A DNA stretch of 56,170 bases, from contig JAOZFH010000035.1 in NCBI GenBank assembly GCA_027491415.1, positions 1 through 56,170 on the forward strand, read 5' to 3'. Shown piece after piece: positions 5,964 to 56,170 of this stretch. Positions within the stretch are counted from its first letter, which is position 1; each line of letters begins with the position of its first letter. This DNA comes from Thermoproteota archaeon. Lineage in GTDB: Archaea; Korarchaeota; Korarchaeia; Korarchaeales; Korarchaeaceae. Position numbers and translations under genes: made by a program. The notes below the pieces were generated by a model. It worked only from the letters and a program-made list of their open reading frames with translations. It had not been told where the DNA came from and searched no databases.

Positions 5964-5986
5964 CTCGTCCCCTCCACCGACCACAG

Positions 5987-5993
5987 TTTTAAG
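5987..5993. promoter_or_regulatory. Bidirectional TATA element (ttttaag)
   Basis: The only A/T-rich patch between two divergent genes. Its centre is about 26 bp from ATG 5963 on the minus strand and about 25 bp from GTG 6014 on the plus strand, the canonical archaeal TATA-to-start spacing in both directions. One element apparently drives both leaderless or near-leaderless transcripts. Confidence 0.5.
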
Positions 5994-6013
5994 CAGCTCG
6001 CGACGCTAGGCGG

Positions 6014-6754
6014 GTGAAGATGCCGGCGCTCGAGGTACTTCGACTGACGAAGCGGTTCGGAGACTTCGCGGCGGTGGACGGGGTCACGTTTCAGGTAGAG
6101 GAGGGGGAGATATTCGGCTTCCTCGGCCCCAACGGGGCCGGGAAGACCACGACCCTCCGGATGATCTACGGGGTCCTCACGCCGACGGCCGGAGACGTCC
6201 TGATCAAGGGTAAGAGCGTTCGCGAGGACCCGGAGGGGGCCAAGGCGCACCTTGGGGTGATGCCCGAGGACGCGGGCATCTACCCCAGGCTGACCACGGA
6301 GGAGAACCTGGTGTACTTCGGCAAGCTCAGGGGGATCCCCGAGGGCGAGCTGAGAGAGAGGACCCCCCAGCTGCTTGACAGGCTCGGGCTGACAGAGAAG
6401 AGGTACGTGCTGGCCGACAAGCTCTCCAAGGGGATGAAGCGTAAGCTGGCCTTCGCCAGGGCGATTCTACATGAGCCCGACATACTCCTCCTCGACGAGC
6501 CGACCTCGGGGGTCGACGTCATGAGCGCCAGGGAGATCAGGTCCATGATCTCGGACTACGCCTCCGGCGGGAGGACCGTTGTGATCAGCACCCACAACAT
6601 GTGGGAGGTCCAGCAGCTCTGCACGCGGGTGGGAATAATCAACCGCGGCCGGCTGATCTACGTCGGCTCTGTCGAGGAGCTGGAGAGGTTGACGGGAGAG
6701 AAAGAGTTCGAGGAGGTCTTCGTGAGGCTGATAAAGGGGGAGGTGGCAGAGTGA
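6014..6754 (+). CDS. ABC transporter ATP-binding protein (NatA/CcmA-like)
   Basis: ATPase of an ABC-2 type exporter, acting at the cytoplasmic face of the membrane with the permease that follows. All motifs are present in 246 residues: Walker A GPNGAGKTT, Q-loop region GVMPEDAGIYPRLT, signature KLSKGMKRKLAFAR (the variant LSKGM typical of the CcmA/NatA group), Walker B ILLLDEPTSGVD and switch His in VISTHNMWEV. The stop overlaps the permease GTG start (gtga), indicating translational coupling. Start is GTG 6014, or ATG 6020. Substrate is unknown; NatAB relatives export sodium or drugs. Confidence 0.9.
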   Translation: MKMPALEVLRLTKRFGDFAAVDGVTFQVEEGEIFGFLGPNGAGKTTTLRMIYGVLTPTAGDVLIKGKSVREDPEGAKAHLGVMPEDAGIYPRLTTEENLVYFGKLRGIPEGELRERTPQLLDRLGLTEKRYVLADKLSKGMKRKLAFARAILHEPDILLLDEPTSGVDVMSAREIRSMISDYASGGRTVVISTHNMWEVQQLCTRVGIINRGRLIYVGSVEELERLTGEKEFEEVFVRLIKGEVAE

Positions 6755-8091
6755 GGCTCCGGAGACCGCGATCCGGATCGGAGGGGGTCGTGAGGTTCAC
6801 CAGGGGCCTGGCCGACCTGGGCTACTCCCTGCCCAACAGGCCTTGGCTCGTCGTCGCGTGGAAGGAGCTCACCGAGTCCCTGAGGGATCGGAGGACCATC
6901 ATCAACGCGGTCCTCCTCCCGATGATCCTCATGCCCATCGCCGTGGGACTGCCCATGCTCTTCCTCAGCCCAAAGACATCCCCGCCCAGGATAGCGATAG
7001 TGCCTACCGACCCCGGGGCCCTCCCCCTCGTGGAGAGGATAACAAGCGAGGTCCCCGGAAACTTCACCATAAAGACGCCCGGGTTCAACGCGACGGACGC
7101 CATTCTGAAGGGCCTCGTCGACTTGGTCGTCGTGATACCCGAGGGCTTCTCCGCCAACATCTCACGGGGCGGGTCGGCGAGGGTGGTCTACCTCTACGAC
7201 CCCTATCAGCTGAAGTCCTCCACGGCCATGGGCCTCGTTCAGGGGGTCGTCGACGAGTACAGCAGGGAGATCTTGAGCGAGAGGCTGAGGAGTCTCAACC
7301 TGTCGGAGGAGTTCGTGGAGCCGATCAGGGCAGTCAGCTACCAAGTCACGGCAACGGGCGCCGCGGCCACGGCCGAGTCCATGTTCGGCGTCATGCTCCT
7401 CCCAATGATGGTCGGAGTGCTGGCGATCACGGGAGCTAGCTCCTTCGCCCTAGACATGATCGCCGGTGAGAGGGAGAGGAGGACCATCGAGGCCCTGCTG
7501 ACCGCTCCTGTGAGGCGGATCTCCATCCTCGCGGGCAAGTACGTCGCCCTGACCGTCCTCGCGGCAGTAATGGGTGTCTCAACCATGGCGTCGGTCGTGC
7601 TCAGCGTCGGCGTCATGGCGGTCGCCGTCCCAATGGAGGAACTCGTCCCCCCTCAGGCCGCCCAGGCGGCGGAGAGGGCCGGGACAGGCCTCGCCTCGCT
7701 CTCCAAGATATTCCCGCAGGGGACCAGCCCGACCGTCATCCTGCTGGGGATAGGGGCCGCTATGCTCCTGGCCGCCCTCACGGGAAACGCCATCGTAGTC
7801 ATGGGGGCCAGCTTCGCCAAGAGCTTCAAGGAGGCCCAGCAGTACGTCGGCGCCATCACCGGCATCATGGTCCTGCCGATGATCGCGGTCCCCTACGCGC
7901 CAGCCAGACTCCTGGGGCCGATGAGGTTCCTGCCCATAACATCCGTCGCGATGCTGGCCAGAGACCTGATCGTGAACCCCGGCGACGTGGCGGCGCTGAC
8001 GACCTCCGGCCTGGCCTCCGTCGTTTATCTGGTGGCATTCTTGTTGGCCAGCGCGAAGCTGTTCGGAAGGGAGTCAGTTGTGTTCGACTGA
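6751..8091 (+). CDS. ABC-2 type transporter permease (NatB-like)
   Basis: Membrane subunit (446 residues) for the preceding ATPase. After the cytosolic amphipathic ELTESLRDRRTIINAVLLP stretch comes one membrane helix, a long extracellular domain (about residues 75-200) and then five or six helices near the C terminus. The ABC2_membrane_3 hallmark AGERERRTIEALLTAPV lies between helices. The coding frame is open further upstream, but GTG 6751 overlapping the ATPase stop is the sensible start. The large outer loop is typical of NatB and of permeases exporting drugs or ions. Substrate cannot be inferred. Confidence 0.87.
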   Translation: MRLRRPRSGSEGVVRFTRGLADLGYSLPNRPWLVVAWKELTESLRDRRTIINAVLLPMILMPIAVGLPMLFLSPKTSPPRIAIVPTDPGALPLVERITSEVPGNFTIKTPGFNATDAILKGLVDLVVVIPEGFSANISRGGSARVVYLYDPYQLKSSTAMGLVQGVVDEYSREILSERLRSLNLSEEFVEPIRAVSYQVTATGAAATAESMFGVMLLPMMVGVLAITGASSFALDMIAGERERRTIEALLTAPVRRISILAGKYVALTVLAAVMGVSTMASVVLSVGVMAVAVPMEELVPPQAAQAAERAGTGLASLSKIFPQGTSPTVILLGIGAAMLLAALTGNAIVVMGASFAKSFKEAQQYVGAITGIMVLPMIAVPYAPARLLGPMRFLPITSVAMLARDLIVNPGDVAALTTSGLASVVYLVAFLLASAKLFGRESVVFD

Positions 8092-8120
8092 TGTCGGCGC
8101 GACGTGCTGGGCGGCTAGCA

Positions 8121-8906
8121 TCAGGAGATCACCACCAGCGCCACCACCAGCCCCAGGAGGCCAAAGGAGACCGCAAACACCCCGGGACTGACCCTCCTGG
8201 ACAGCCTCATGAGGGCGTGCATGGACGCGTAGCCGGAGCCCGCCGCGGCTGCGGCTGAGAGGACCTGCGCGACGCCGACTTCCACGGCACCGGTGAGCGC
8301 CACCAGGCCGGCGGCGCCGAGAGAGGCAGGTATGGAGAGCAGGAAGGACAGCTTCAGGGCCCTCTCTGCCTCCAGTCCCATTAGCATGAGGCCCAACACC
8401 GTGATCCCAGACCTGCTGACTCCGGGGAGCGCGGCAACGCCCTGAAGGGATCCCACGAGCGCCCCTAGCCTGACGGGATCCGCAGGCCCGACCTCGACCG
8501 CCCTACCCTCCGCGAGTAGGAGCGCGAGTCCGAGGGCGGTGAGCAGGGTGGGGGTCACCAGCGCGAGGGCGGCGCTCGACGGCACCCTCGTGGCGAGCAG
8601 GTAGAATGGGACGCCGGTGACGGCGGTGACGGCCGTGCCGACCAATAGGTACTTGAACGCCTCGGGATCCCCGCCCTCGGCGCGGAGGGGCCAGATGATG
8701 GCCGCGGCGAGCTCCGACCTGAGGTAGGCCGCGGCCGCGAGGGACGTCCCGAGGTGGAGCCAGAGGGCGGTCGACACCGCCGAGGCCGGGGGCGCGCCCA
8801 CTAGCATCGAGAGGAGGACAGAGACCTGCCCCTCGCTGCTGACCGGCAGCCACTCCAGCACGCCCTGAACGAGGCCCGCCAGTATCGTCGCGACGGTGGG
8901 GTTCAA
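8121..8906 (-). CDS. uppP: Undecaprenyl-diphosphatase family protein (BacA/UppP-like)
   Basis: Polytopic membrane phosphatase of 261 residues. In bacteria UppP recycles undecaprenyl diphosphate; in archaea the natural substrate is expected to be a dolichyl-type diphosphate used for N-glycan or S-layer glycan assembly (inference). Both family signatures are visible: GLVQGVLEWLPVSSEGQ near the N terminus and LPGVSRSGITVLG in the middle. In the first motif the usual final His of SSxGH is Gln. About seven or eight hydrophobic helices fill the sequence. ATG 8906 overlaps the Nudix gene stop by 4 bp (atga). Confidence 0.85.
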   Translation of the reverse strand: MNPTVATILAGLVQGVLEWLPVSSEGQVSVLLSMLVGAPPASAVSTALWLHLGTSLAAAAYLRSELAAAIIWPLRAEGGDPEAFKYLLVGTAVTAVTGVPFYLLATRVPSSAALALVTPTLLTALGLALLLAEGRAVEVGPADPVRLGALVGSLQGVAALPGVSRSGITVLGLMLMGLEAERALKLSFLLSIPASLGAAGLVALTGAVEVGVAQVLSAAAAAGSGYASMHALMRLSRRVSPGVFAVSFGLLGLVVALVVIS

Positions 8907-9349
8907 CGCCGCCCACCGCCCTGAACCACCCTCTTGGCCACAGAGGACATCAGATACACGCCTCGGAGGGTCTCTCCCCTAGTCTCCATCTGCCTTATGT
9001 CCTCGACGGTGAACCATCCCCAGTCGTCGTGTTCCTCCGGCCTGAGCACGGGCTCTCCGCTGTGGAAGACGGCGTAGAGCGGTATGATGAACTGAACGGA
9101 GCCGTAGCCGTAGACGAAGGAGAACGTGTCCACCGGGATCAGGTCGACTGGCCGTATCTTGAACCCAGTCTCCTCCTCCAGCTCCCTCGACGCGGCCTCC
9201 CGCGGGGTCTCGCCGAACTTCAGGCTGCCCCCGGGTATCTCCCACTTGCCGCCGTACCGCTTCTTCTTTGACCTCTTTAGTAGAAGCACCTCCCCCCGTC
9301 CGTTGAAGACAACGACGCAGGGAACCACGTGAATTCTCCTCTTCTTCAA
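8903..9349 (-). CDS. Nudix hydrolase
   Basis: Hydrolyses a nucleoside-diphosphate-linked compound; the substrate is not evident. The full Nudix box GGSLKFGETPREAASRELEEETGF lies about residues 40-63, which fits G-x5-E-x7-RE-x2-EE-x-G-[UF]. Length (148 residues) is usual for small Nudix proteins of the MutT/ADP-ribose type. It is translationally coupled to the downstream uppP (4-bp overlap) and lies 19 nt after the zinc-ribbon membrane protein gene, so these genes form one minus-strand operon. Confidence 0.88.
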   Translation of the reverse strand: MKKRRIHVVPCVVVFNGRGEVLLLKRSKKKRYGGKWEIPGGSLKFGETPREAASRELEEETGFKIRPVDLIPVDTFSFVYGYGSVQFIIPLYAVFHSGEPVLRPEEHDDWGWFTVEDIRQMETRGETLRGVYLMSSVAKRVVQGGGRR

Positions 9350-45539: not shown

Positions 45540-46579
45540 TGCAGGGTGGGGACGACCTCAGGGACGCCGGGAGGATAGTGAGGCACCTGCTGTTCAACAG
45601 CCTCGATGTGGAGTCCCTGAGCATCCGGGGGATGGAGAGGGCGCTGGGCATACCCTTCTCCAGGCTCAGGCGACTGCTCAGGTGGCTCCAGAGTGAGGGA
45701 GTAGTCGTGGGATATCAGGTGGGCACCTCGATGGCCTTCAGGGTACTAGACCTCGAGAGGGCCGTTCACCTCGGCCTGGTGAGCCTGTCCACGGAGGACC
45801 TGGAGAGGGCCGTGTACGGCTCCATGGCGCTGCCGGCCTCGGTCAGGGGCATGGTGCGCGACGACCTCACCCTCAAGTTCCTGCCAGCGTCCAGCGACCT
45901 GCCGGGGCCCTACCTCGCGGCGATAGGGGACCTGAGGAGGAGGTGGGACCTCCTCTACCAGGCGGCCAGGAGGGCCTTCACGGGCGGGGACGGGGAGAGG
46001 GTGGGGCAGACGGGTCGAAGGGGGGCCGACGGCATGGAGGCCAGCCTGAGGCTCCTGGGGAGGGATTTCGTGTCCAAGGCGGGCCTCATCCCCCTCCTGT
46101 ACCTCGTGGCCGTCAGGCAGCTCAAGGTCCCTGTGGAGGTTGAGCTCGACGAGGACGACATAGAGGGCATGCTGCACAGGCTCAGGGTCGAGGCCGGCGT
46201 CGGGGAGGACGAGGTGAGGCTCCTGAGGTACTTTCCCTCCCTGGACCCCATAGCCCTGTTCGCGAGGGACGTGGTCATGGAGCTCGGGGTTCCCGAGGAG
46301 GTGAGCGAGGAGGAGCTCAGGCGGGCTGTCTCCAGGGTGGCGGAGAAGTACCTCCGCCTCCTGCTGAAGTTCTCCCGCGGGAGGCACCCGTCCAGGGAGG
46401 CCCGGCTCGTGGAGGCGCTTACCCTCAGGCACGGGGCCCTGTTCGGCATACTGACCGGGGCCCCGGCGGATCTCGTGAGTGAGTGCCTCTCCAGGGCGAG
46501 CGAGCTGGAGGAGGGGTCGAACTCAGGGGAGGGGAGGTTGAGGTCGTTGGGGAGGTGTGGGGATGCTCGAGCTGGCTGA
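45539..46579 (+). CDS. Winged-helix transcriptional regulator with large C-terminal domain
   Basis: 346 residues. The N terminus has an HTH: RHLLFNSLDVESLSIRGMERALGIPFSRLRRLLRWLQSEG with wing-like VVGYQVGTSMAFRVLDL. The long helical remainder (about 95-340) has no motif I recognise (e.g. LLYLVAVRQLKVPVEVELDEDDIEGML); it could bind an effector or oligomerise. GTG 45539 gives a leaderless mRNA 24 bp after its TATA box and lies in the palindrome; TTG 45533 is the alternative. Position next to the RiPP operon makes it the first candidate regulator of that cluster. Confidence 0.68.
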   Translation: MQGGDDLRDAGRIVRHLLFNSLDVESLSIRGMERALGIPFSRLRRLLRWLQSEGVVVGYQVGTSMAFRVLDLERAVHLGLVSLSTEDLERAVYGSMALPASVRGMVRDDLTLKFLPASSDLPGPYLAAIGDLRRRWDLLYQAARRAFTGGDGERVGQTGRRGADGMEASLRLLGRDFVSKAGLIPLLYLVAVRQLKVPVEVELDEDDIEGMLHRLRVEAGVGEDEVRLLRYFPSLDPIALFARDVVMELGVPEEVSEEELRRAVSRVAEKYLRLLLKFSRGRHPSREARLVEALTLRHGALFGILTGAPADLVSECLSRASELEEGSNSGEGRLRSLGRCGDARAG

Positions 46580-46901
46580 GCCCCCCGTCGCGGATGCTGA
46601 GGCCGTGTTCTCCCTCAGGAGGAGTAGGGTAAGGAGGGAGGTCCTCTCCTTCCTGGCCAGGATACACCCGAGGGCCTCCTACCCCAGCGAGATAGCCAGG
46701 GCGATAAACGCCAGGGCTGACCAGGTCCTCGCGGCGCTGAGGGGCTACGGGACCAGGTACAGGAGGGACATATCCCTCCTCGGGCTCGGACTCGTGAGGG
46801 AGGTCGGGAGGGGACCCAAGCTCACCCTCTACGCCGCCACCGAGAAGGGGGTCAGGGTGGTCGCCTACCTGAACATGGTCGAGTACAACCTCTCCCAGTG
46901 A
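46563..46901 (+). CDS. Small winged-helix regulator
   Basis: 112 residues: VLSFLARIHPRASYPSEIARAINARADQVLAALRG is a helix-turn-helix with the archaeal PadR/HTH-type pattern, and GLVREVGRGPKLTLYAATEKGVRVV is the wing. ATG 46563 has gggaggtg five bases upstream and overlaps the preceding regulator by 17 bp, so both regulators are coexpressed. GTG 46557 possible. Confidence 0.72.
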   Translation: MLELAEPPVADAEAVFSLRRSRVRREVLSFLARIHPRASYPSEIARAINARADQVLAALRGYGTRYRRDISLLGLGLVREVGRGPKLTLYAATEKGVRVVAYLNMVEYNLSQ

Positions 46902-47131
46902 GAACCGCCCGAAAGGGCCGACGAAGTACATCCAGCATCCACACACGGCACAGTTCTTCCCCCCTCGGCTTCCCGCCGCCGTCCTGGGGCTGATGTGGCC
47001 CTCCGCCCAGCCGCGTGCGCCTCACCGCGCGGCCCCCGGGTTACCTGCGGGCCACGAGCTCAGGGGGGGTCGGTGGGGGGCCGGGCCAGGATCTCAAGGG
47101 GGCCCGAGGGGAGCGGGAGGCAGCGGCGCCG

Positions 47132-47140
47132 CCCTTATAA
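47132..47140 (+). promoter_or_regulatory. TATA box of the DUF4097-like gene
   Basis: cccttataa, centre about 45 bp before ATG 47182, predicts a start near 47163. The 250 bp between 46902 and this box hold nothing I recognise. Confidence 0.4.
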
Positions 47141-47181
47141 CAGGGGGGCGGGAGGGCGTCGCCTGTCACCGGTCTCGGGAG

Positions 47182-48318
47182 ATGGCGTGGATGATGGTTG
47201 GCCTGAAGGAGCTCCTCCTCGGCGCGGCTTCGGCGCTCGTCCTCGTTGGGGTGCTCGCCTGCTCGCTGCTGTGCATCCCGTGGCACCTGCTGCCGGACTC
47301 TGGGGCCTTGCCCGCCGTTCTGGGCCTGGCGGCAGCCCTCGGCGCGGCCGCCGCGGGGAGGGCCCGCGGCGGGGTCAGGGTGGCCGCCTGGCTGGCGGCG
47401 GTCACCCTGGCCGCGCTCTCACTCGCCGCGGTCGGCTCGACGCTCGGGTTCAGGGTGGTCCCGAACTCGCCGTACGCGTCCGCAACCCTCGCGGACGTGC
47501 CCTGCGACAGTCCCCTGATCTTGAACGTGACGGCGGTCCCGTTCCACGTCAACGTCCAGCCCTGGGGTGGTGAGGGCGTGTCTGTGGTGATCGAGGCCCC
47601 CTCAAACCTGGTCGAGGAGGTGGAGAGGAGTGTTACCATCTCGCACGCCGTTGATCCGTCCGACGGCATCCTCCACCTGCGGATCCAGAGCGAGTACAGG
47701 AGGCCCATCGCGATCGGGTGGCTCGCCCTCTCCCCGCCCGAGCTGACGCTCAGGGTGATGGTTCCTTGGGCTGGCGGCTGCAGGGTGCTGCGGGCGTACA
47801 TATACACCGTGAGCGGAGACGTGGCCGTGCGTGTGGACGTCGATCTGTTATCCGTCCAGAGCGTCCACGGGAGCCTGAACCTCTCGGGGGATTTCGGGGT
47901 CCTGGAGGCCGAGACCGTCAGCGGCGGCGTCTTCCTGAGCGGAGGGGTGCTGCGCGGCGGGACCGTGAGGTCGACCAGCGGCGACGTGAGGGGGGAGGTC
48001 CTGGCCGCCGCAGGGGCCCTCGGCTCAGCGGGCGCAGGCGGCACCCTCTACCTGAGTACGACGAGCGGGGACATAGAGGTCGAGATCTCGAGGGAAGAGG
48101 ACGTCCACCTGGAGATCTACGCCAGCACGACGAGCGGGCGCGCGACCCTGATGGAGGACGGTGGCGGCTCGGGAGGCGGCCTCGACGTCGCGGTCATCTC
48201 CGAGGGTGAGGTCAGGGGGAGCGTCGGGCCCCCCGGGGGACGAGAGTTCAGGCTCGTGGCCGAGACAACCAGCGGCGACGTAACCATAAGGTACGCCGGG
48301 GTCTGGCGGGCCGGGTAG
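47182..48318 (+). CDS. Membrane protein with DUF4097-like beta-helix domain
   Basis: 378 residues. Three hydrophobic helices in the first 90 residues (ASALVLVGVLACSLLCIPWHLL, ALPAVLGLAAALGAAAAG, VAAWLAAVTLAALSLAAVGS), then an extracellular repetitive beta domain. Recurrent TVSGDVAVRVD, ETVSGGVFLSGG, RSTSGDVRGEV, STTSGDIEVEI, ASTTSGRATLM and ETTSGDVTIRYA are the DUF4097/adhesin-like repeat (SGDV/SGDI once per turn). Role unknown; such proteins occur in envelope stress and adhesion contexts. ATG 47182. Confidence 0.7.
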   Translation: MAWMMVGLKELLLGAASALVLVGVLACSLLCIPWHLLPDSGALPAVLGLAAALGAAAAGRARGGVRVAAWLAAVTLAALSLAAVGSTLGFRVVPNSPYASATLADVPCDSPLILNVTAVPFHVNVQPWGGEGVSVVIEAPSNLVEEVERSVTISHAVDPSDGILHLRIQSEYRRPIAIGWLALSPPELTLRVMVPWAGGCRVLRAYIYTVSGDVAVRVDVDLLSVQSVHGSLNLSGDFGVLEAETVSGGVFLSGGVLRGGTVRSTSGDVRGEVLAAAGALGSAGAGGTLYLSTTSGDIEVEISREEDVHLEIYASTTSGRATLMEDGGGSGGGLDVAVISEGEVRGSVGPPGGREFRLVAETTSGDVTIRYAGVWRAG

Positions 48319-48387
48319 GTCTGGGGCGCATTCCGCCCGCCCCGGTGGGAGGGCGGAGAGCGTAATTTCCGACGGCGGCCGCCCGCC

Positions 48388-48864
48388 GTGCGCGCCCTTG
48401 ATGGTACCACTCCACACCTCGCCAGGCTCGAGGCGATCTACCTGCTGGCCCTGGCGGTCGCGGCCTCCGGCTCGGGCGGGCAGCCCCGCCCCGCGGCTCG
48501 GGCAGGGGTCCCGAGGACCGATGCGGCGTTGGAGGAGTTCGCGTCGTGGTCCTCTTCAGCGCTCCTGACCCTGGCGCTGGCCGTGATCCACCCCCTCCTG
48601 GCCCTGGCGCCGACCGTCTCGGTCGCCCTGTCCTCGGCCTGCGCCCCGTTCTCGAAGGGCGTTGCGGGCACGGTCGCCCTGGGGAGGTTGGCCGGCTCCC
48701 AGCTCATACTGCTGGTGGCCTCCATGGGCCTTGCGGAGAGGGCCAGGCAGGTCTCACCCGGGCCCGGGGCCGGGGGAGTGGCGGAGAGGTGGCGCTCCAC
48801 GGTCGAGTTCCTGAGGGGGGATACCGACGGTACTCGCGGCCTCCCTGATCCCCTCCCTCCTTGA
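48388..48864 (+). CDS. Hypothetical membrane protein
   Basis: 158 residues, not recognised. Hydrophobic stretches LEAIYLLALAVAAS, ALLTLALAVIHPLLALAPTVSVAL and LAGSQLILLVASMGL suggest two or three helices. Its C-terminal part is Gly/Pro/Arg-rich and could be partly spurious. GTG 48388 lies about 25 bp after an A/T patch (gtaattt, 48363-48369). The reading is supported mainly by position between two membrane-protein genes on the same strand. Confidence 0.4.
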   Translation: MRALDGTTPHLARLEAIYLLALAVAASGSGGQPRPAARAGVPRTDAALEEFASWSSSALLTLALAVIHPLLALAPTVSVALSSACAPFSKGVAGTVALGRLAGSQLILLVASMGLAERARQVSPGPGAGGVAERWRSTVEFLRGDTDGTRGLPDPLPP

Positions 48865-48883
48865 GGCGGCGGGGGCGTGACCC

Positions 48884-49369
48884 ATGGGGCCTATCCCCGT
48901 GAGGAGGCTCGCCGGGGCGCTGACCTTCTTGGCCGTAGCGCTGGCCCTGCCGTCGGGCTGGGAGGTTCGGGGGCCACTCGAGGGCCTGACACGCCTGGTC
49001 GGGGCCCTGATCACGTCAAGCCCGTTGGTGCTGGGGGCCTGCGTCCACAGGTCCCTCCCAGATAGGCACGACAGGCCCGACGACTTCGGCGGCCTGATTA
49101 CGGAGGGGCCCTACTCGGTCGTCAGGCATCCGTTCTACCTCACCACGATCTTGGCCTGGCTGGGGGCGGCCGTCTACTCGCTATCGACCGGCATTCTGCT
49201 GTTGGCGCTGACCTCAGGGCTCCTCTGGTCGCTGGCCGCCGCCCTGGAGGAGCGAGGACTCAGGAGGCGGTGGCCGTGTGAGTACGAGGAGTACTCGCGC
49301 CGCGTGCCCATGCTGATTCCCCTCCCGCGGCGCCGGGGGGCCGGGAGGAACTCCGACTCCCGGGGATAG
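48884..49369 (+). CDS. Isoprenylcysteine carboxyl methyltransferase-like protein
   Basis: 161-residue membrane methyltransferase. Helices LAGALTFLAVALALPSG, LVGALITSSPLVLGACV, LAWLGAAVYSLSTGILLLALTSGLLWSL surround the SAM-binding motif EGPYSVVRHPFYLTT; the end CEYEEYSRRVPMLIPLP is the usual ICMT/PEMT catalytic tail. Second member of this family in the window (see 35045-35566). Acceptor unknown. Confidence 0.75.
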   Translation: MGPIPVRRLAGALTFLAVALALPSGWEVRGPLEGLTRLVGALITSSPLVLGACVHRSLPDRHDRPDDFGGLITEGPYSVVRHPFYLTTILAWLGAAVYSLSTGILLLALTSGLLWSLAAALEERGLRRRWPCEYEEYSRRVPMLIPLPRRRGAGRNSDSRG

Positions 49370-49497
49370 GAGAGAGGTCCCCCGAGTCGCCTACCATCTA
49401 GGGGGGCGTCGCGCGACTGTGGGGGGCTGACTCGATGGGTCCGTGTATTGAAGGGGGTGTAGGTGCGGCCCTGGGTAGGTCCGGGGGAGAGTCGGGC

Positions 49498-50100
49498 TCA
49501 GGACATCCCAAGCCTGGCCTTGATGAGGGCGAGGTCCTCCTCTATCTTTCTGAGCCTCTCATCCAAGAGAGAATTCAGGTCCAGCCTCAGCCGATCGAAG
49601 CCCTCCTTGATCTCCTTCTTCAGCTCCTCCTTCGCCGACCGAACCTCGGTGACGAGGAGGTCCTGCTTACCCAGCACCTGATCCATCTTGCCGAGCATTA
49701 GATCCTGCTTCTCGAGCATCCGGTCTTGCTTCTCCAGCATGAGGTCCTGCTTCTCGAGGAGCTGATCCTGCTTCTCGAGCATCTGAACCCCGGCCTGCAC
49801 TATCTTGACGAGCTGCTCCAGGCTGAAGACCCTGTAGAACGACTCCACGTCGGGCACGGGCCCCGGGTGCTCGGCCACCTCGACGGACCGCACCTCTGCA
49901 ACGGGGGGCCTCTCCTCCATGGCCATCCCAACGAACTCCTCCAACGCCGCCTCAGGCCCGTCCGCCAGAACCTCGAGGGCTCCGTTGAGGTTCCTGGCGT
50001 AGAACCCGGTGAGACCGAGCGCTGTGGCGCGCTGGAAGAGGAAGAGCCTGTAGCCAACCTCGGTGACCCTCGGCCCCCTGATCAGCAGCCGCCTGGCCAT
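49498..50100 (-). CDS. Acylphosphatase-like domain fused to a heptad-repeat coiled coil
   Basis: 200 residues. The first ~75 match acylphosphatase: RLLIRGPRVTEVGYRLFLFQ (with the phosphate-loop VGYR Arg), LGLTGFYARNLNGALEVLADGP (catalytic-type Asn), EEFVGMAMEERPPVAEVRSVEV. Then come tandem seven-residue units LEKQDxM/L (seven or eight copies: LEKQDQL, LEKQDLM, LEKQDRM, LEKQDLM, LGKMDQV, LGKQDLL) and a charged coiled coil (KEELKKEIKEGFDRLRLDLNSLLDERLRKIEEDLALIKARL). Possibly an oligomeric scaffold rather than an enzyme. ATG 50100 is leaderless from the minus-strand TATA gcttaatagc at about 50124-50133. Confidence 0.7.
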   Translation of the reverse strand: MARRLLIRGPRVTEVGYRLFLFQRATALGLTGFYARNLNGALEVLADGPEAALEEFVGMAMEERPPVAEVRSVEVAEHPGPVPDVESFYRVFSLEQLVKIVQAGVQMLEKQDQLLEKQDLMLEKQDRMLEKQDLMLGKMDQVLGKQDLLVTEVRSAKEELKKEIKEGFDRLRLDLNSLLDERLRKIEEDLALIKARLGMS

Positions 50101-50104
50101 TCAC

Positions 50105-50438
50105 CGTAACCCGTCCCGAGCGCTATTAAGCGTGGTGAGACGGGAAGCTTTCTCCGACCCCCGGGGACTCGACGATGGACTGACCAATGCGCGCCGGGGG
50201 CGGGTCCCGTGGAGGGCGGGGCAGACAGGACCCGAGGCGGGGGACGAGGTCCTGAACTCCGCACAGGCGGCGAGGGTAGAGGGTCGGCCACCCCTTGAGG
50301 GAGCTGGCGGCTGGCGGGTTGAGAGGGTGGGGTCGCCGCGGGGGGCTCTACCCCGGCCTTGTGCTCCCCGCCCCCCTGAGAGAGGTCTCCATGAGCTCTC
50401 AGGCAGCACGACGCACCTCTCCACCGTCTCCCGATCGG
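50105..50438. other. Region without a recognised intact gene
   Basis: About 330 bp between the acylphosphatase gene start and the recognisable part of the HEPN remnant. One minus-strand frame continues from the HEPN remnant to 50101 but its residues after VVLPESSW are Arg/Gly/Pro-rich and look non-coding. Probably decayed sequence. Confidence 0.4.
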
Positions 50439-50721
50439 TCATGCGTCTCGAGTAGTCGGCCCTCTTCCTGGCCCCGTACGGCTCGAGCAGACCGGCGGCC
50501 TCGGCCTCCAACCCGGGGTTGTCACGGCGTTGGCCAGCTTGTCGTCCCTCCTCGGCACCCTCCTGGCCGGTCGAGACGAGGAGGAGTTCCGCGGCCATCC
50601 TGGCCGACATGTAGGCGGCGCTGACGGCCTTGCCGTAGCACCGACCTCCAAGTCGATCCTGGCCTGGATCAGCAGGTGTCTAACCTCGTCGAAGCTCAAC
50701 CTCGCCCTCCTCCACGGTCAT
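50439..50721 (-). pseudogene. HEPN-domain protein, broken by several frameshifts
   Basis: Pieces of one HEPN protein lie in two alternating frames. In order: MTVEEGEV (frame of ATG 50721), LSFDEVRHLLIQARIDLEV (other frame), CYGKAVSAAYMSARMAAELLLVS, PARRVPRRDDKLANAV, then GLEAEAAGLLEPYGARKRADYSRRM. Combined they give a standard HEPN helix bundle with RKRADY near the end. At least four switches are needed, occurring as compensating pairs. HEPN proteins of this type pair with a nucleotidyltransferase-like partner; the upstream gene (50718-50981) overlaps ATG 50721 by 4 bp as in intact pairs. Either a decayed toxin-antitoxin unit or multiple indel errors. Confidence 0.6.
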
Positions 50722-50981
50722 GAGCTCAGCCCCTCGACTCCGAGCCTCCTCTGGGCATCCAGGGCGGCCCGGGCGACCAGCCTGAGGGCCTCGGCGTCCA
50801 CCCTGTCCACGAAGACGAAGACGTTGCCGTCGTACAGCAGGTCGTCGGGCGAGCTCCTGGCGACAACCCTCCTGAGCCTCCGGCCGAGCCTCCTCTGGAG
50901 TTCAGCCCGGAACTCCCTGACCAGCTCGAGCCAGGGGGGCCCGGCGGTGAGGTCCACCAGGTACGACACTCCCACATGCAC
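50718..50981 (-). CDS. Partner protein of the HEPN pair (degenerate nucleotidyltransferase-like)
   Basis: 87 residues from GTG 50981: YLVDLTAGPPWLELVREFRAEL, RRVVARSSPDDLLYDGNVFVFVDRVD, LRLVARAALDAQRRLG. The position just upstream of and overlapping a HEPN gene is that of MNT antitoxins, but the GSxxRG and DxD motifs of nucleotidyltransferases are missing; the N-terminal part may have been lost. Call rests on context. Confidence 0.4.
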   Translation of the reverse strand: MHVGVSYLVDLTAGPPWLELVREFRAELQRRLGRRLRRVVARSSPDDLLYDGNVFVFVDRVDAEALRLVARAALDAQRRLGVEGLSS

Positions 50982-51075
50982 AGACGCCCGGGGGCCCGAA
51001 GGCCCTCCGCGGGAGGTCGACGAGGGCGTGAGGTAGAGGGGAGGGCGGCCCCGGGGCCCTCCGTCCGGCCCCCGG

Positions 51076-51423
51076 TCAGGCCAGGCCGATCGCGTGGGCC
51101 AGCGCCAGCCAGGCGAGCCAGACTGCCACCGCGATTGAGCCGACTCTGACGCCCACCACCGGGGTCCGCCACCAGGCGTCTCTCCTCCCGGCCGCCCTGG
51201 CCAGCGCCCTCGGGTAGTAGATCAGGAAGCCCCCCAGGCCCAGGGTGAGGGCGGCGAACAGCAGGCTCGGGGGCGAGGTCGCCGAGCCGGGCGGCCAGGG
51301 CTCCGACCCGAGGAGGGCCCTGAGGGCCGGAGCCACGGCGTACTTCACGTACAGGGCGCACGCCAGGAGGTAGAAGTACAGGGGAGGGACGAGCCTCGGA
51401 AGGGACCTCGTCGACCGGCTCAT
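51076..51423 (-). CDS. Small membrane protein next to the Cys-rich precursor
   Basis: 115 residues, three hydrophobic helices: LVPPLYFYLLACALYVKYAV, LLFAALTLGLGGFLIYYP, VGSIAVAVWLAWLALAHAIG. ATG 51423 starts 8 nt after the stop of the halocin-like gene, so both are probably cotranscribed. Small membrane proteins beside bacteriocin genes often give immunity or help export; that is only suggested by position here. Confidence 0.55.
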   Translation of the reverse strand: MSRSTRSLPRLVPPLYFYLLACALYVKYAVAPALRALLGSEPWPPGSATSPPSLLFAALTLGLGGFLIYYPRALARAAGRRDAWWRTPVVGVRVGSIAVAVWLAWLALAHAIGLA

Positions 51424-51430
51424 CTCTGCT

Positions 51431-52381
51431 TCACCCGTAAGGGGGTTCCTTAAAGCACTTCTTCCCCCAGCGCTCACAGCACCTCCCGATGGTTGAGTAG
51501 GCGCACCAGACCAGTATACATGCGATGCAAGCCGACGTGCTTATTGCACATGGAATAGCGCAGTACGCCGCCTGTGCACACTCTCTCAGGACGCAGGTCC
51601 AGCTTATGTCGCAGCAGTACCAGCTGCAGTAATAATTGAGGGGGCATTCGGAGTCATATCGGCAGTAGATGCCGCAGCCGCCTAGGATGCTGACTCCTTC
51701 GCCCTCGGAAGAGAAGGCCTTGAGAACAAGCTTGTCGCCACGTATCTCCCAGAGAAAGGCGTCTTCCTTAACATCGCCGTCGTCGAACTCGAACCTCCTG
51801 GCCAAGACCACATGTCTCTCGTCTACGGGGATTCCTACGGCGGTGAGCTTCGCGGGCTCTCCATTAACCATGACTATGTGCTCGCCAGCCGACACTCCCT
51901 CTGCAGGCACTTTAACTCCTAGCCCGGTCTTGCCAAGGAGCGACCTTACGAATTCCCTCTTAACTATCTTCTCCGCGAAATCCCTCGCCAGATCCTCGTC
52001 CAACCTCCTAGAATCCAACACCTCGAGTCTCTTGACCTCCGCCACCCGGGGAACAGCCATCGCCTTGACGACCCTCCCGAGTCCCAGCTGTGCGAGGGTC
52101 GCCACGATGAGGAACTTGAATCCCATTGATAGGAATTCTCTGCGCTTCAGGCCGCCCCCCTCAAACTCCACGGCCGATCGTTCACACTCACAACACTCTC
52201 TCGTGGCCTTGTAGGCGAGGAGCACGAGTGCTGGCAGGAACGCTGCCTCAAGCAGGATCAAAGCTCTCTCTAGGAGGGGACTAATTTGGCTCAAGTGTAG
52301 ACTTATTACGATTAATCCATTTAACAGGGAGGCGGCTCCAAGCAGTCCCAGCAGGGATGCGGGATGTCTTGCACTTGGCAT
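51431..52381 (-). CDS. Candidate halocin C8-like secreted peptide precursor (16-Cys C terminus)
   Basis: 316 residues. Two membrane helices open the protein (LLGLLGAASLLNGLIVISLHL, LLEAAFLPALVLLAYKA), then KRREFLSMGFKFLIVATLAQLGLG, a twin-arginine-like motif before a third hydrophobic stretch. A soluble middle domain (about 105-235) follows. The last ~82 residues carry 16 cysteines mixed with Ala/Ile: GGCGIYCRYDSECPLNYYCS, YCCDISWTC, ECAQAAYCAIPCAISTSACI, LVWCAYSTIGRCCERWGKKC. Layout and Cys/Ala-rich core resemble halocin C8 precursors, where an N-terminal immunity part and a C-terminal antimicrobial peptide are cut apart. Codon use is more A/T-rich than neighbours, and the upstream 80 bp are very A/T-rich, hinting at transfer. 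ATG 52381 has aggtga six bases upstream. Confidence 0.6.
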   Translation of the reverse strand: MPSARHPASLLGLLGAASLLNGLIVISLHLSQISPLLERALILLEAAFLPALVLLAYKATRECCECERSAVEFEGGGLKRREFLSMGFKFLIVATLAQLGLGRVVKAMAVPRVAEVKRLEVLDSRRLDEDLARDFAEKIVKREFVRSLLGKTGLGVKVPAEGVSAGEHIVMVNGEPAKLTAVGIPVDERHVVLARRFEFDDGDVKEDAFLWEIRGDKLVLKAFSSEGEGVSILGGCGIYCRYDSECPLNYYCSWYCCDISWTCVLRECAQAAYCAIPCAISTSACIACILVWCAYSTIGRCCERWGKKCFKEPPYG

Positions 52382-52614
52382 AGAATATCACCTGCATTCC
52401 TATGGTAAAGATTAGTTATTTGCTGAAAAGCAAAGATTATTTAAGTCTATACCTTAAAATTTTCATACCAGACTACCCTAGTGAAAAGTCTAGCTGCGGC
52501 CGAATTGGGGCCGCCTCCTGCCGGGCGTCTAGCTGGCTGAGTTTGAGTTGGTGGAAGGTATCACAGGTGAGTGTGTTTATGGAGCCTTGGGCTCTCAACC
52601 CGGCCGTCGTGCTA

Positions 52615-52648
52615 CTTCCAACCCTGCAGTAAGAAGCGGCCAATCTGC
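52615..52648 (+). repeat. Orphan CRISPR repeat remnant
   Basis: A 34-bp stretch with only three mismatches to the first 34 positions of the 37-bp array repeat (cttccaaccctgcagtaa then gaagcggccaatctgc). The final three bases differ. It is in the same orientation as the array that begins 1,969 bp to the right, with two toxin-antitoxin modules between. Likely an old trailer-end repeat stranded when those genes arrived, or a relic of another array. Confidence 0.75.
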
Positions 52649-52775
52649 GGAGCTGAGAAAGGAGGCCCAGAAGCTCCTGAGCGAACATACCCAGACTGCG
52701 GAGTTCTCAGGGCAGGGGCGTGGAGATACGGCGAGGGAACCCGATCATGGCGTGACGGACGGGCCCGGGGAGAGA

Positions 52776-52809
52776 GTATACCGTTTAGAAATCCCAATTT
52801 GGTATACCG
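52776..52809 (+). promoter_or_regulatory. vapB promoter with two gtataccg boxes
   Basis: gtataccg occurs at 52776-52783 and 52802-52809 (the second within palindromic ggtatacc), 26 bp apart and flanking tttagaaatc, the likely TATA box about 26 bp before ATG 52814. Fits autorepression by a VapB dimer. Confidence 0.5.
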
Positions 52810-52813
52810 CCCG

Positions 52814-53041
52814 ATGTCGGAGGTCGTCAGCTTCAAGGTGCCGCAAGAAGTGAGGAGGAAGATGAGGGAGTACGCGGACAGGGTTAGGTGGAGCGAGGAG
52901 CTCAGGAGCTGCGTGATCAGGAGGATAGAGGAGATAGAGAGGGAGGAGAACCTCAGGAGGGTCGTCGAGCTCATCGAGTCGACGGCCAGCGTGCCCAGGG
53001 GCTTCTCAACCGCCAGCGTGAGGGAGGACAGGGGCTCTTGA
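52814..53041 (+). CDS. vapB: VapB-type antitoxin (ribbon-helix-helix-like)
   Basis: 75 residues: SEVVSFKVPQEVRRKMREYADRV with a beta strand and helix for DNA binding, a charged middle (RRIEEIEREENLRRVVELI), and the C-terminal toxin-wrapping tail PRGFSTASVREDRGS with the conserved R-x-DR end. ATG 52814 is leaderless. The stop overlaps the toxin's TTG start by 3 bases (ttga). Confidence 0.8.
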   Translation: MSEVVSFKVPQEVRRKMREYADRVRWSEELRSCVIRRIEEIEREENLRRVVELIESTASVPRGFSTASVREDRGS

Positions 53042-53450
53042 GCGCGGTCGACGCGTCGATAGTGGCCAGGTTCGTCCTCGGGGAGGAGGGCTGGAGGTCC
53101 CCTGCGGATCACCTGAGGAGCGCCGTGACCGTCGACCACGTCGTGAAGGAGACCGCCAACTCGGTGTGGAAGGCCCTGCGAAGGGGGCTGATTGGGGAGT
53201 CAGATGCCGAGAGGAAGTTTCAGGCCTTAACGGCCCTGTCGAGAAGAACCTGAGCCTCGTAGACGAGCTGGAGCTCCTGCCCGAGGCGTTCAGGCTGGCG
53301 ATCGAGGAGGGCATCACGGTTTACGACGCGGTGTACGTGGAACTCGCCAGGAGGAAGGGGGTGCCCCTCGTGACCGGAGACTCCTCTCAGGCGGAGGCCG
53401 CCGGGAGGGCCGGTGTGGAGGCCCTGTGCTGTGATGCGGGTATCCCCTAG
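53038..53450 (+). pseudogene. vapC: VapC-type PIN-domain toxin, frameshifted
   Basis: PIN ribonuclease in two frames. Part 1 (TTG 53038 to stop 53253): AVDASIVARFVLGEE (first Asp), TVDHVVKETANSVWKALRRG (conserved Glu). Part 2 (frame ending 53450): VEKNLSLVDELELLPEAFRLA, ITVYDAVYVELARRKG (Asp) and LVTGDSSQAEAAGRAG (Asp). All four acidic residues exist but the frame changes by one base near 53230-53245. A single-base indel explains it; toxin inactivation or an assembly error are equally possible. Confidence 0.75.
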
Positions 53451-53811
53451 CTCAGCCTCCGCGCTCGATCCCAACCTGCCCGGCGACCGCGTCCACGAAT
53501 CCGACCGCCTCCAGCGGTCTCCCCGCGCGCGAAGGGCGAGGGCCGCGGGCCTCACGGCTCGAACCTCCGGTCGGTTGAGCCCACTTCCTCAGATATACCC
53601 TGTGGTTACGAGCCGAGCCCTCTCGGCGACTCACTCGACGAAGCGGCTGAGGGCGAGAGTCCGGCGGGCTCTGGACCTCCCGAAGGCCCTCGCGCCGGCA
53701 CCCGAGGCGCGGCCGTCCGGCGACCGATCCCGAGGAGGCCGCGGGGGTCGCGACCACGCGCGGGCGGCGGCGGACCTCCCCCGCCCTCGCCAGCGGACTG
53801 ATCTCAGAAAA
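53451..53811. other. Intergenic region between two toxin-antitoxin modules
   Basis: About 360 bp, very GC-rich, with short overlapping ORFs of Arg/Pro/Ser composition on both strands, none with a motif. I see no gene, repeat copy or RNA here. Confidence 0.4.
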
Positions 53812-53839
53812 TTTTTAAGTCTGGGAATTTTCCAAATTC
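53812..53839 (+). promoter_or_regulatory. Promoter and palindromic operator of the AbrB-PIN module
   Basis: TATA-like tttttaagtc (53812-53821) is followed at once by gaatttTCCaaattc (53825-53839), a perfect inverted repeat with 3-bp centre, placed to cover the transcript start. It suits autoregulation by the AbrB-like antitoxin. Confidence 0.5.
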
Positions 53840-53852
53840 TGGGTAGCGGGTA

Positions 53853-54098
53853 TTGTCTGAGGTCAAGGTCAGGATCACCAAGAAGTTCACCCTGTACATC
53901 CCCAGGTCGATAGCCGGGGCCGCGGGCCTCAGGGAGGGGGACTACGTGAGGATGAGGGTCGAGGGCTCCAAGGTAATCCTGGAGCGGGTGCCCGATCCCT
54001 TCGAGCTGGCCCTGAAGGGGCCTAAGTTCGCCAGGATCACGTTTGAGGAATTCGAGAGGGAGTCCGAGGAGATGCAGGATGCGCTCTTCGGCGATTAG
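53853..54098 (+). CDS. AbrB/SpoVT-type antitoxin
   Basis: 81 residues from TTG 53853: KVRITKKFTLYIPRSIAGAAGLREGDYVRMRVEGSKVIL in two pieces (KVRITKKFTLYIPRSIAGAA; GLREGDYVRMRVEG) is the swapped-hairpin AbrB DNA-binding fold. The C-terminal acidic tail (ITFEEFERESEEMQDALFGD) should occupy the toxin active site. It overlaps the PIN toxin by 20 bp. Confidence 0.82.
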   Translation: MSEVKVRITKKFTLYIPRSIAGAAGLREGDYVRMRVEGSKVILERVPDPFELALKGPKFARITFEEFERESEEMQDALFGD

Positions 54099-54540
54099 GA
54101 TACTCCTGGACTCGACCTACCTGCTGCCCATCTTGGGAGTCGACGTGGAGGGCGTCGACGAGGCCCTGAGGGTGCTGAAAGGGCTCAGATCCGGCAGGAG
54201 GGCGGAGTTCTATTACACGGAGTTCAACCTGATCGAGGTGCTGGGAAAGATAGGCAGGACCGACTACGACCGGGGCAGGGTGCTCGCGGGCCTCAACTCC
54301 ATCGAGGAGGAGTTCAGGCTCACCCGCCCAACGGTCGAGGGGTACCTGAGGGCCCTGGCCCTCAGGAGGGTCGGCTTCAGAGATCTCATAGATCTGCTCC
54401 TCTACGCCACATCCCTGACGAGGGACCTCCTGTTCCTGACGAGGGACGACCACCTGATCGAGTTCCTGGAGGGGCGGGGCGAGGACACCCGGAGGGTGCT
54501 CCACGAGAGGTCCCTGATAGAGGAGTACGGGGGAGGGTAG
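54079..54540 (+). CDS. PIN-domain ribonuclease toxin
   Basis: 153 residues: RILLDSTYLLPILGV (first Asp), YTEFNLIEVLGKIGR (Glu), GFRDLIDLLLYATSLT (Asp pair) and FLTRDDHLIEF (terminal Asp). This is the VapC-like fold with an intact acidic quartet. ATG 54079 (MRSSAIRILLD) is chosen over upstream in-frame ATG 54043 that lies deep in the antitoxin gene. It lies 77 bp from the degenerate end of the CRISPR array. Confidence 0.8.
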   Translation: MRSSAIRILLDSTYLLPILGVDVEGVDEALRVLKGLRSGRRAEFYYTEFNLIEVLGKIGRTDYDRGRVLAGLNSIEEEFRLTRPTVEGYLRALALRRVGFRDLIDLLLYATSLTRDLLFLTRDDHLIEFLEGRGEDTRRVLHERSLIEEYGGG

Positions 54541-54616
54541 GCTCTGGCTGGATTGGAGTGGAGTGCCGTTGAGGGGCATCAAGCCCGTCTCCGTCACGTG
54601 CTGATCCCCGGATATC

Positions 54617-54653
54617 CTCTCAGCCCTGCCGCTTCTTGCGGCAAATCTGCTTC
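54617..54653 (-). repeat. Degenerate terminal CRISPR repeat with inverted hairpin loop
   Basis: 37 bp long and colinear with the repeat, but the core reads gccgc-ttctt-gcggc instead of gccgc-aagaa-gcggc, i.e. the exact reverse complement of the 15-bp hairpin, plus four point differences (positions 3, 7, 27 and 28). Marks the trailer end of the array. Confidence 0.85.
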
Positions 54654-56170
54654 GCCCCCTGTGGTGGAAGTCAATGTCTGTGCCATCAACCTCTTTCAAC
54701 CCTGCCGCAAGAAGCGGCTGATCTGCTTCCCCGGGCTGGAGCCAGCTCGCGCGCTCGAGGTCGCTTTCTTTCAACCCTGCCGCAAGAAGCGGCTGATCTG
54801 CTTCAACGAGGATCTCGCTAGGCTGAAGGCCCTGATAGTCTTTCAACCCTGCCGCAAGAAGCGGCTGATCTGCTTCTGGCGGGTCAGGGAGAGGAGGCAG
54901 GATCTGGAGCTGTACTTTCAACCCTGCCGCAAGAAGCGGCTGATCTGCTTCACGACGTGGCCGAGAAGGTTTCAGGAGCCCCGCCCCCATCCTTTCAACC
55001 CTGCCGCAAGAAGCGGCCAATCTGCTTCGATACGACATAGGTGGAATATTCACGTCAATTCGAGCTTTCAACCCTGCCGCAAGAAGCGGCCAATCTGCTT
55101 CTCGGGCACGCCCAAGCCCGAGGAGGTGGAGTACTTCGACTTTCAACCCTGCCGCAAGAAGCGGCCAATCTGCTTCTGGCCGAGGACCTGGTCGTGGTCG
55201 AGAGGGCGGTTCTCTTTCAACCCTGCCGCAAGAAGCGGCCAATCTGCTTCTTAAGAAGGCCACCGTGACAGAGACGAGAACAACAACTCTTTCAACCCTG
55301 CCGCAAGAAGCGGCCAATCTGCTTCCGGGTTCTGCCCCGAGGAGAACCACCTCCTGACCCAGTACTTTCAACCCTGCCGCAAGAAGCGGCCAATCTGCTT
55401 CTTCGACGCCCCCGACTACCAGGGCAACCTGAGGGCCTGCTTTCAACCCTGCCGCAAGAAGCGGCCAATCTGCTTCGGAGCTTGAGGCCGAGCTTGAGGG
55501 CGCGGTAAACCGGATAACTTTCAACCCTGCCGCAAGAAGCGGCCAATCTGCTTCCTCTTGGCCGCCAGGTCGTCCCTGACCGCCATCCAGTCTTTCAACC
55601 CTGCCGCAAGAAGCGGCCAATCTGCTTCCAAGCATCCGCTTTGAGGAGTTCGAGTTCTTGACTATGACTTTCAACCCTGCCGCAAGAAGCGGCCAATCTG
55701 CTTCTCAAATTTTGGCGATTCAGGCCGATTTCTTCATAGTCACTTTCAACCCTGCCGCAAGAAGCGGCCAATCTGCTTCGTCAGCACTCTGGCGGCCAAG
55801 AAGGACCTGCCCCTCTCCTTTCAACCCTGCCGCAAGAAGCGGCCAATCTGCTTCCAATGTTGTCTAAGTTAGCTATTATTTCATTCCAAACATTCTTTCA
55901 ACCCTGCCGCAAGAAGCGGCCAATCTGCTTCATGGGAACGCCGAGGCTGTGCAGCGCCGGGGTCGGTCGGCTTTCAACCCTGCCGCAAGAAGCGGCCAAT
56001 CTGCTTCCTCGGCCACCCCGGCCCTGGCGACTCATGCGTTACCACCCTTTCAACCCTGCCGCAAGAAGCGGCCAATCTGCTTCAGGGCTTACATCGGCTG
56101 GCTGGAGACCTACAAGCTAACTTTCAACCCTGCCGCAAGAAGCGGCCAATCTGCTTCACCGAAAGCAAAA
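54617..56170 (-). CRISPR. CRISPR array: 20 near-identical 37-bp repeats plus one degenerate terminal repeat, continues beyond window
   Basis: Plus-strand repeat is ctttcaaccctgccgcaa followed by gaagcggccaatctgcttc (37 bp). Full repeats start at 54693, 54768, 54840, 54915, 54992, 55065, 55140, 55214, 55289, 55365, 55440, 55518, 55592, 55668, 55743, 55818, 55895, 55971, 56047 and 56121; spacers are 35-41 bp. A degenerate copy is at 54617-54653. The core gccgc-aagaa-gcggc forms a hairpin. Read on the minus strand the repeat ends in gttgaaag, the usual 8-nt crRNA handle of archaeal type I/III systems, and the degenerate copy is on the left, so the leader should lie to the right. The four leftmost full repeats have gcggctgatc, all others gcggccaatc. 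No cas gene is in the window. Confidence 0.97.

What the first reader, a model, noticed from the sequence alone, without database searches (positions are those of the whole stretch)
51076..52381. Halocin-C8-like precursor with 16 C-terminal cysteines and an adjacent small membrane protein
The protein combines N-terminal helices, a twin-Arg-like RREFL motif, a soluble middle domain and an ~82-residue Cys/Ala/Ile-rich tail, the layout of halocin C8, whose precursor is cut into immunity protein and antimicrobial peptide. The following three-helix protein 8 nt downstream could be immunity or export. Composition is more A/T-rich than flanking genes. A halocin-like peptide outside haloarchaea, in a GC-rich probable thermophile, would be notable.
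Basis: partly seen in the sequence, partly recalled or inferred. Interest (0 to 1): 0.75.

Follow-up and report, generated by a model that had tools for sequence, protein, structure and literature searches.

The report
Korarchaeal secreted cysteine-rich bacteriocin-like precursor
A hot-spring-type archaeon (a korarchaeote) carries, on a small island that its sister species lacks, a gene pair that looks like a secreted, disulfide-rich killing peptide and its protective membrane partner; it has the layout of the salt-archaeal toxin halocin C8, but its nearest detectable relatives outside its phylum are two unnamed bacterial proteins, so an antimicrobial peptide is likely but untested.

Summary
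In detail: window 51431-52381(-) encodes 316 aa with 16 Cys in the last 82 residues (next best frame in the window: 9), an RRxFL motif, a soluble middle domain, and a small membrane gene 7 nt downstream. The literal reading "halocin C8 family" is not supported: neither TIGR04449 (tail) nor PF22862 (middle domain) hits it, and profile-profile scores with real halocin C8 precursors are at shuffled-control level. The layout reading is supported. The protein belongs to an unnamed family found in 5 of 29 korarchaeal genomes (a sixth keeps the N-terminal module only), three copies in this genome, each copy followed by a membrane gene, and homologous over middle domain and tail to single proteins of Thermomicrobium roseum and Curtobacterium. 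The twin Arg is invariant and TatC is in the genome. The locus sits in a 2.7-kb block, flanked by 13-nt direct repeats, that is missing from the sister species. Methanodesulfokora has a separate Cys-tail locus with swapped tail-plus-membrane cassettes, the mark of toxin-immunity systems. Best explanation: a Tat-exported precursor of a disulfide-stabilised hydrophobic antimicrobial peptide with membrane immunity. No activity, cleavage or disulfide was tested.

The parts
51431..52381 (-). precursor gene, 316 aa
   Evidence: ORF; homologues in four other korarchaeal genomes and two paralogues in the same genome
52208..52354 (-). N-terminal membrane part, residues 10-58: two hydrophobic helices
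   Evidence: hydropathy; AF2 helices 8-30 and 35-65, low confidence
52058..52153 (-). twin-arginine-type signal, residues 77-108 (GLKRREFLSMGFKFLIVATLAQLGLGRVVKAM region)
   Evidence: R80 R81 invariant in 3 korarchaeal and 2 bacterial homologues; TatC in own genome, E 1.6e-44
51680..52054 (-). middle (pro/immunity candidate) domain, residues 110-234, strand-helix-helix-five strands
   Evidence: AF2 model of middle+tail, mean pLDDT 70.5, pTM 0.72; homology to T. roseum middle domain above shuffles
51434..51679 (-). C-terminal 82-residue tail with 16 Cys (predicted peptide)
   Evidence: 10 Cys invariant in five tails; tail profile related to bacterial tails above Cys-preserving shuffles
51076..51423 (-). 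115-aa membrane protein, immunity candidate, 7 nt downstream
   Evidence: membrane gene directly downstream in every homologue, sequences mostly unrelated
52382..52470 (-). A/T-rich promoter region with GGTGAT ribosome site upstream of ATG and CTTAAATAAT box
   Evidence: read directly; inference
51008..53678 (.). block absent from sister genome G006
   Evidence: G006 matches window 46000-51007 (94%) then 53682-54729 (88%) on adjoining bases
50995..51007 (+). left copy of 13-nt direct repeat CCCGAAGGCCCTC
53679..53691 (+). right copy of the 13-nt direct repeat

Best explanation
The gene encodes a precursor of a secreted antimicrobial peptide (a korarchaeal bacteriocin). The protein folds with its cysteines, probably as disulfides, is anchored by N-terminal helices and exported through the Tat system at its internal RRxFL signal. 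A protease then frees the roughly 80-residue, hydrophobic, 16-cysteine tail, which would act on membranes of competing archaea or bacteria. The producer is protected by the membrane protein encoded 7 nt downstream, by the retained middle domain (as HalI protects in halocin C8), or by both. The pair is an accessory module that is gained, duplicated and lost. Shown here: sequence, family, invariant RR and Cys, TatC in the genome, conserved downstream membrane gene, presence/absence between sister species. Inferred: export, disulfides, cleavage, toxicity, immunity.
For: Family of precursors with the same order of parts in 5 of 29 korarchaeal genomes, three copies in this genome. Every precursor is followed directly by a multi-helix membrane gene whose sequence changes between lineages while related precursors keep related partners (G014/G016 37%; C36/C46 69%; window and G026 unrelated). 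Homology over middle domain and tail to T. roseum (hhalign 96.5%, E 9e-10) and Curtobacterium (89%, 2e-6), each with a small membrane gene behind it, above shuffled controls. RR invariant, TatC present. Patchy: absent in the sister species at the same site with 13-nt flanking repeats; a decayed C36-type relic remains elsewhere in that genome. In a korarchaeote of the same family another signal-peptide/Cys-tail precursor is followed by tandem tail-plus-membrane cassettes; two share a linker 98% identical over 45 nt and unlike after it, the pattern of polymorphic toxins. Halocin C8 precedent: Tat export, cleavage to HalI plus 76-aa peptide (PMC11509114).
Against: No toxicity, secretion or cleavage data. 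The tail has no detectable homology to any tested toxin. The AF2 model has no match among solved structures. The N-terminal helices may keep the protein membrane-bound rather than released. The middle domain of the two Sec-type paralogues is not detectably related to the Tat-type one. Bacterial support rests on two proteins whose single-sequence tblastn hits were not significant, although profile comparison was.
Confidence: 0.58

Rival explanations
1. A Tat-exported, membrane-anchored redox or metal-cofactor protein (Fe-S or other metal bound by the Cys tail) with its partner membrane subunit, used in respiration or redox balance.
For: Tat often carries cofactor proteins; anchored N terminus; relatives sit with redox-type genes: MauE in Curtobacterium and an N-terminal YDGACGRC motif in T. 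roseum.
Against: Spacing of the Cys varies and includes CC pairs; no ferredoxin-like CxxCxxCxxxC motif; Pfam, NCBIfam, PHROGs and solved-structure profiles give nothing; patchy indel distribution and unrelated membrane partners do not fit a core redox enzyme. The MauE/oxidoreductase company fits disulfide formation as well.
Confidence: 0.15
2. A secreted or surface Cys-rich signalling, adhesion or self-recognition protein, not toxic.
For: Same architecture would serve; three paralogues in one genome.
Against: Adjacent fast-changing membrane gene, indel island beside TA genes, hydrophobic tail and the cassette swapping in a related korarchaeote are more typical of toxin-immunity pairs.
Confidence: 0.15
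3. A true, highly diverged member of the halocin C8 family whose similarity is below the sensitivity of the small profiles used.
For: Same order of parts; the AF2 middle domain is strand-helix-helix-strands, the order one would also read by eye in the halocin C8 middle domain; the best (insignificant) alignment falls on that helical region.
Against: TIGR04449 and PF22862 give no hit; profile scores equal shuffles; the tail Cys patterns (10 Cys in halocin C8, 16 here) do not align.
Confidence: 0.12

Closest known systems
Halocin C8 precursors (ProC8; PF22862 Hac8_like_N + TIGR04449 halocin_C8_dom)
   Same: RR signal, middle domain, Cys-rich hydrophobic C-terminal tail of similar length, small membrane gene shortly downstream in the Halobacterium and Haloferax larsenii loci looked at
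   Different: No sequence similarity found; 16 rather than 10 Cys; two extra N-terminal helices before the RR; thermophilic korarchaeote, not a halophile
Thermomicrobium roseum TRD_RS12315 (WP_012642562.1, hypothetical protein, megaplasmid)
   Same: Homologous middle domain and 16-Cys tail, RR signal, small membrane gene 9 nt downstream
   Different: N-terminal part carries a CxxC-type motif (YDGACGRC) instead of two helices; a bacterium
Curtobacterium pS16 DEJ19_RS20825 (WP_146250426.1, hypothetical protein)
   Same: Tat signal, related tail, overlapping small membrane gene downstream
   Different: 10 Cys; preceded by a MauE gene; no N-terminal helices; middle domain on its own not significant
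Candidatus Methanodesulfokora Cys-tail cassette locus (G026:C151, L020)
   Same: Signal, middle region, Cys-rich hydrophobic tail followed by a membrane gene
   Different: Unrelated sequence; tandem tail-plus-membrane cassettes; weak sub-threshold TIGR04449 similarity

Membership tests
Halocin C8 family | C-terminal domain matching TIGR04449 | tested here: not met
   No match at E<=10 in hmmscan or in the whole genome; positive control 61.5 bits; tail profile score 7.5-7.7
Halocin C8 family | Middle/N-terminal domain matching PF22862 | tested here: not met
   No match; real precursors match at 1e-44 or better; profile score 11-14 against shuffled maximum 16
Halocin C8 family | Tat signal | tested here: met
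   RRxFL plus hydrophobic stretch, RR invariant, TatC present; but no Tat profile (NCBIfam) hit for the window protein itself
Halocin C8 family | Cleavage to immunity protein plus free peptide with antimicrobial activity | not testable with these tools
   needs culture or heterologous expression
Unnamed Tat/Cys-tail family (korarchaea, T. roseum, Curtobacterium) | RR signal, homologous middle domain and tail, adjacent membrane gene | tested here: met
Polymorphic toxin system | Conserved N-terminal trafficking part with swapped C-terminal toxin and adjacent immunity genes | tested here: inconclusive
   Membrane partners vary; G024 has the N-terminal part joined to another C terminus; cassette swapping shown only for the unrelated G026:C151 locus

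The most novel reading that the evidence does not exclude
The first family of Tat-exported, disulfide-rich antimicrobial peptide precursors in korarchaea, shared with a Thermomicrobium and an actinobacterial species: a cross-domain class of 'folded, oxidised, then exported' peptide toxins, distinct from halocin C8, with linked disulfide-forming genes in bacteria and separate membrane immunity proteins.
Probability: 0.35. Interest if true: 0.75.

Novelty: new variant of a known kind. Interest (0 to 1): 0.55.

Why it matters
The papers found here describe archaeal peptide toxins almost only from haloarchaea and Sulfolobales. A family in korarchaea, which are hardly cultivated, with detectable bacterial relatives would extend peptide warfare to a deep archaeal lineage and offer heat-stable disulfide-rich peptides. 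The tail plus membrane-partner pair is small enough to test directly. Makarova et al. 2019 (mBio 10:e00715-19, not held here) already widened the halocin C8 family to other archaea and some bacteria (my recollection of its abstract), so part of this family may have been seen there.

Tried and rejected
Pfam, NCBIfam, PADLOC, PHROGs and PDB sequence searches of the window protein: nothing. Genome-contig scans found only Methanodesulfokora; viral contigs nothing; phages nothing. Full-length AF2 model poor (pLDDT 50); middle+tail model better (70.5), but no fold match in PDB or viral models. A CRISPR-guarded toxin idea (solo CRISPR-like repeat upstream acting as a CreA-like guide) was checked: no pairing with promoter or gene beyond shuffles, dropped. 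VKOR in korarchaeal genomes and DCC1-like family in the own genome: none found. G025:C18 hit is a primase-like gene, a false positive. Limits: only the korarchaeal phylum, plasmids, phages, viral contigs and two pattern-based scans of genome contigs could be searched, so the spread of the family in other phyla is unknown.

Full report
What is there. The open frame 51431-52381 on the minus strand encodes 316 residues. Its parts, from the N terminus: two hydrophobic helices (about 10-58), a CC-C cluster at 63-66, an RRxFL motif at 80-84 followed by a hydrophobic stretch, a soluble domain (110-234) and an 82-residue tail with 16 cysteines. No other frame in the window comes near this cysteine density; the next has 9 in 82 residues. 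The next gene on the same strand starts 7 nt after the stop (ATG at 51423, 115 aa, membrane protein).

Where it comes from. The phylum set held for this genome has 29 genomes; the one named hit is Candidatus Methanodesulfokora washburnensis, class Korarchaeia. The window is therefore korarchaeal. It is the whole of contig C1.

Family. No curated family covers the protein. Searching the phylum with the protein and then with growing alignments gave homologues in G026 (E 1.6e-22 by single sequence), G014, G016 and G022, and two further copies in the same genome on C36 and C46. The alignment of five tails keeps ten cysteines. The two paralogues have a Sec-type signal instead of the RR part, and their middle domain is not detectably related to the Tat-type one; the tail is (hhalign 95%). 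Every precursor has a membrane gene directly downstream. These partners are mostly unrelated to each other, except that close precursors have close partners. G024 keeps the N-terminal membrane part joined to a different short C terminus.

Bacterial relatives. A tblastn search of plasmids with the G026 protein gave two weak hits of meaningful shape: T. roseum TRD_RS12315 and a Curtobacterium protein. Profile comparison makes both clear: 96.5% (E 9e-10) and 89% (E 2e-6) over middle domain and tail. In controls, the T. roseum middle domain scored 27.4 against a maximum of 15.2 in shuffles, and the tails 28.6 and 28.2 against maxima of 20.5 and 22.2 in shuffles that kept every Cys in place. The Curtobacterium middle domain on its own is not significant. 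Both have a small membrane gene directly behind them (T. roseum 9 nt downstream; overlapping in Curtobacterium). Curtobacterium has a MauE gene directly before it, and the T. roseum protein begins with YDGACGRC, a motif like those of thiol-disulfide oxidoreductases (by eye; Pfam does not confirm it). Both hint at disulfide formation.

Halocin C8. Three real halocin C8 precursors were taken from Haloferax and Halobacterium plasmids as controls. Those scanned match PF22862 at 1e-44 or better and TIGR04449. The window family matches neither model, and profile-profile scores are within shuffled noise for both domains. So it is not filed as a member. Its layout is the same, and the literature on halocin C8 (Tat export, cleavage into HalI and a 76-aa peptide; PMC11509114; toxin acting as its own protection, PMC8628083; a C-terminal active fragment with unknown protease, PMC12893001) is the best working model.

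Export. R80 and R81 are invariant in three korarchaeal and two bacterial homologues, and the genome encodes TatC (E 1.6e-44). VKOR was not found in any of the 29 genomes. From general knowledge, Tat carries folded proteins, and cytosolic disulfides are common in hyperthermophilic archaea, so oxidation before export is possible; this is inference.

Mobility. In the same-genus genome G006 the flanks of this locus are joined: window 46000-51007 matches at 94% and 53682-54729 at 88% on adjoining bases. The missing block holds the precursor, the membrane gene, a solo CRISPR-like repeat and a frame-broken PIN toxin-antitoxin pair, and is flanked by a 13-nt direct repeat. Whether G006 lost it or this genome gained it is open; the low G+C of the precursor (0.564 against 0.652) favours gain. 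G006 has no intact copy of the family but a decayed remnant of a C36-type pair, with Cys codons mutated, on its contig C9.

A second system in the phylum. Methanodesulfokora contig C151 encodes a signal-peptide precursor with an 8-Cys tail, then a membrane gene, then a tail-only frame, a membrane gene, another tail-only frame and a small membrane gene. Two tail-only units share a 45-nt linker at 98% identity and drop to about chance beyond it. This is the arrangement expected of toxin tips that are swapped by recombination, each with its immunity gene. It is a different family, with a sub-threshold TIGR04449 similarity, but it suggests that Cys-tail plus membrane-gene modules behave as toxin-immunity cassettes in this lineage.

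Structure. A two-row AF2 model of middle domain and tail reaches pLDDT 70.5 and pTM 0.72: strand, two helices, five strands, then a tail of short helices bracketed by two strands. It has no match among PDB or viral structures. Two rows are few, so the tail fold is a guess.

Verdict. A real, unnamed family; most likely a precursor of a secreted, disulfide-rich antimicrobial peptide with membrane immunity; works like halocin C8 but is not shown to be related to it. No function was tested.

Noticed in passing
L020 (G026:C151) 5220-9024, minus strand: Methanodesulfokora locus with one full Cys-tail precursor and two tail-only cassettes, each followed by a membrane gene; linker 98% identical between two cassettes over 45 nt, then unrelated. 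Looks like a polymorphic toxin-immunity array in a korarchaeote.
   Followed up: partly
window 52616-52651: Solo CRISPR-like repeat (6 of 36 mismatches to the array repeat; best in shuffles 13) about 235 nt upstream of the precursor start, 2 kb from the array. No CreA-like pairing with the toxin promoter found.
   Followed up: partly
window 54694-56157: CRISPR array of 20 repeats, running to the contig end; four repeats at the left end carry a two-base variant, and a more degenerate repeat lies at about 54618-54653.
   Followed up: no
window 52815-53450 and 53853-54540: Two toxin-antitoxin pairs of the PIN type; in the first, inside the indel block, the PIN gene is broken by a frameshift (52888-53253 and 53166-53450).
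   Followed up: no
L058 (G006:C9) about 2376-2616: Decayed remnant of a C36-type precursor tail (Cys changed to Arg/Tyr) and its membrane gene in the sister species.
   Followed up: partly
L009 (G024:C71) 1351-1812, minus strand: N-terminal membrane part of the family joined to a different short C-terminal sequence, followed by another membrane gene.
   Followed up: partly
L025 2551-2880 (T. roseum): Bacterial relative begins with YDGACGRC, like thiol-disulfide oxidoreductases of the DCC type, fused in front of the RR signal; Pfam gives no support.
   Followed up: partly
L025 3580-6040 (T. roseum): Four genes for short, apparently membrane-bound proteins follow the bacterial relative in a row, possibly an array of immunity genes.
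   Followed up: no
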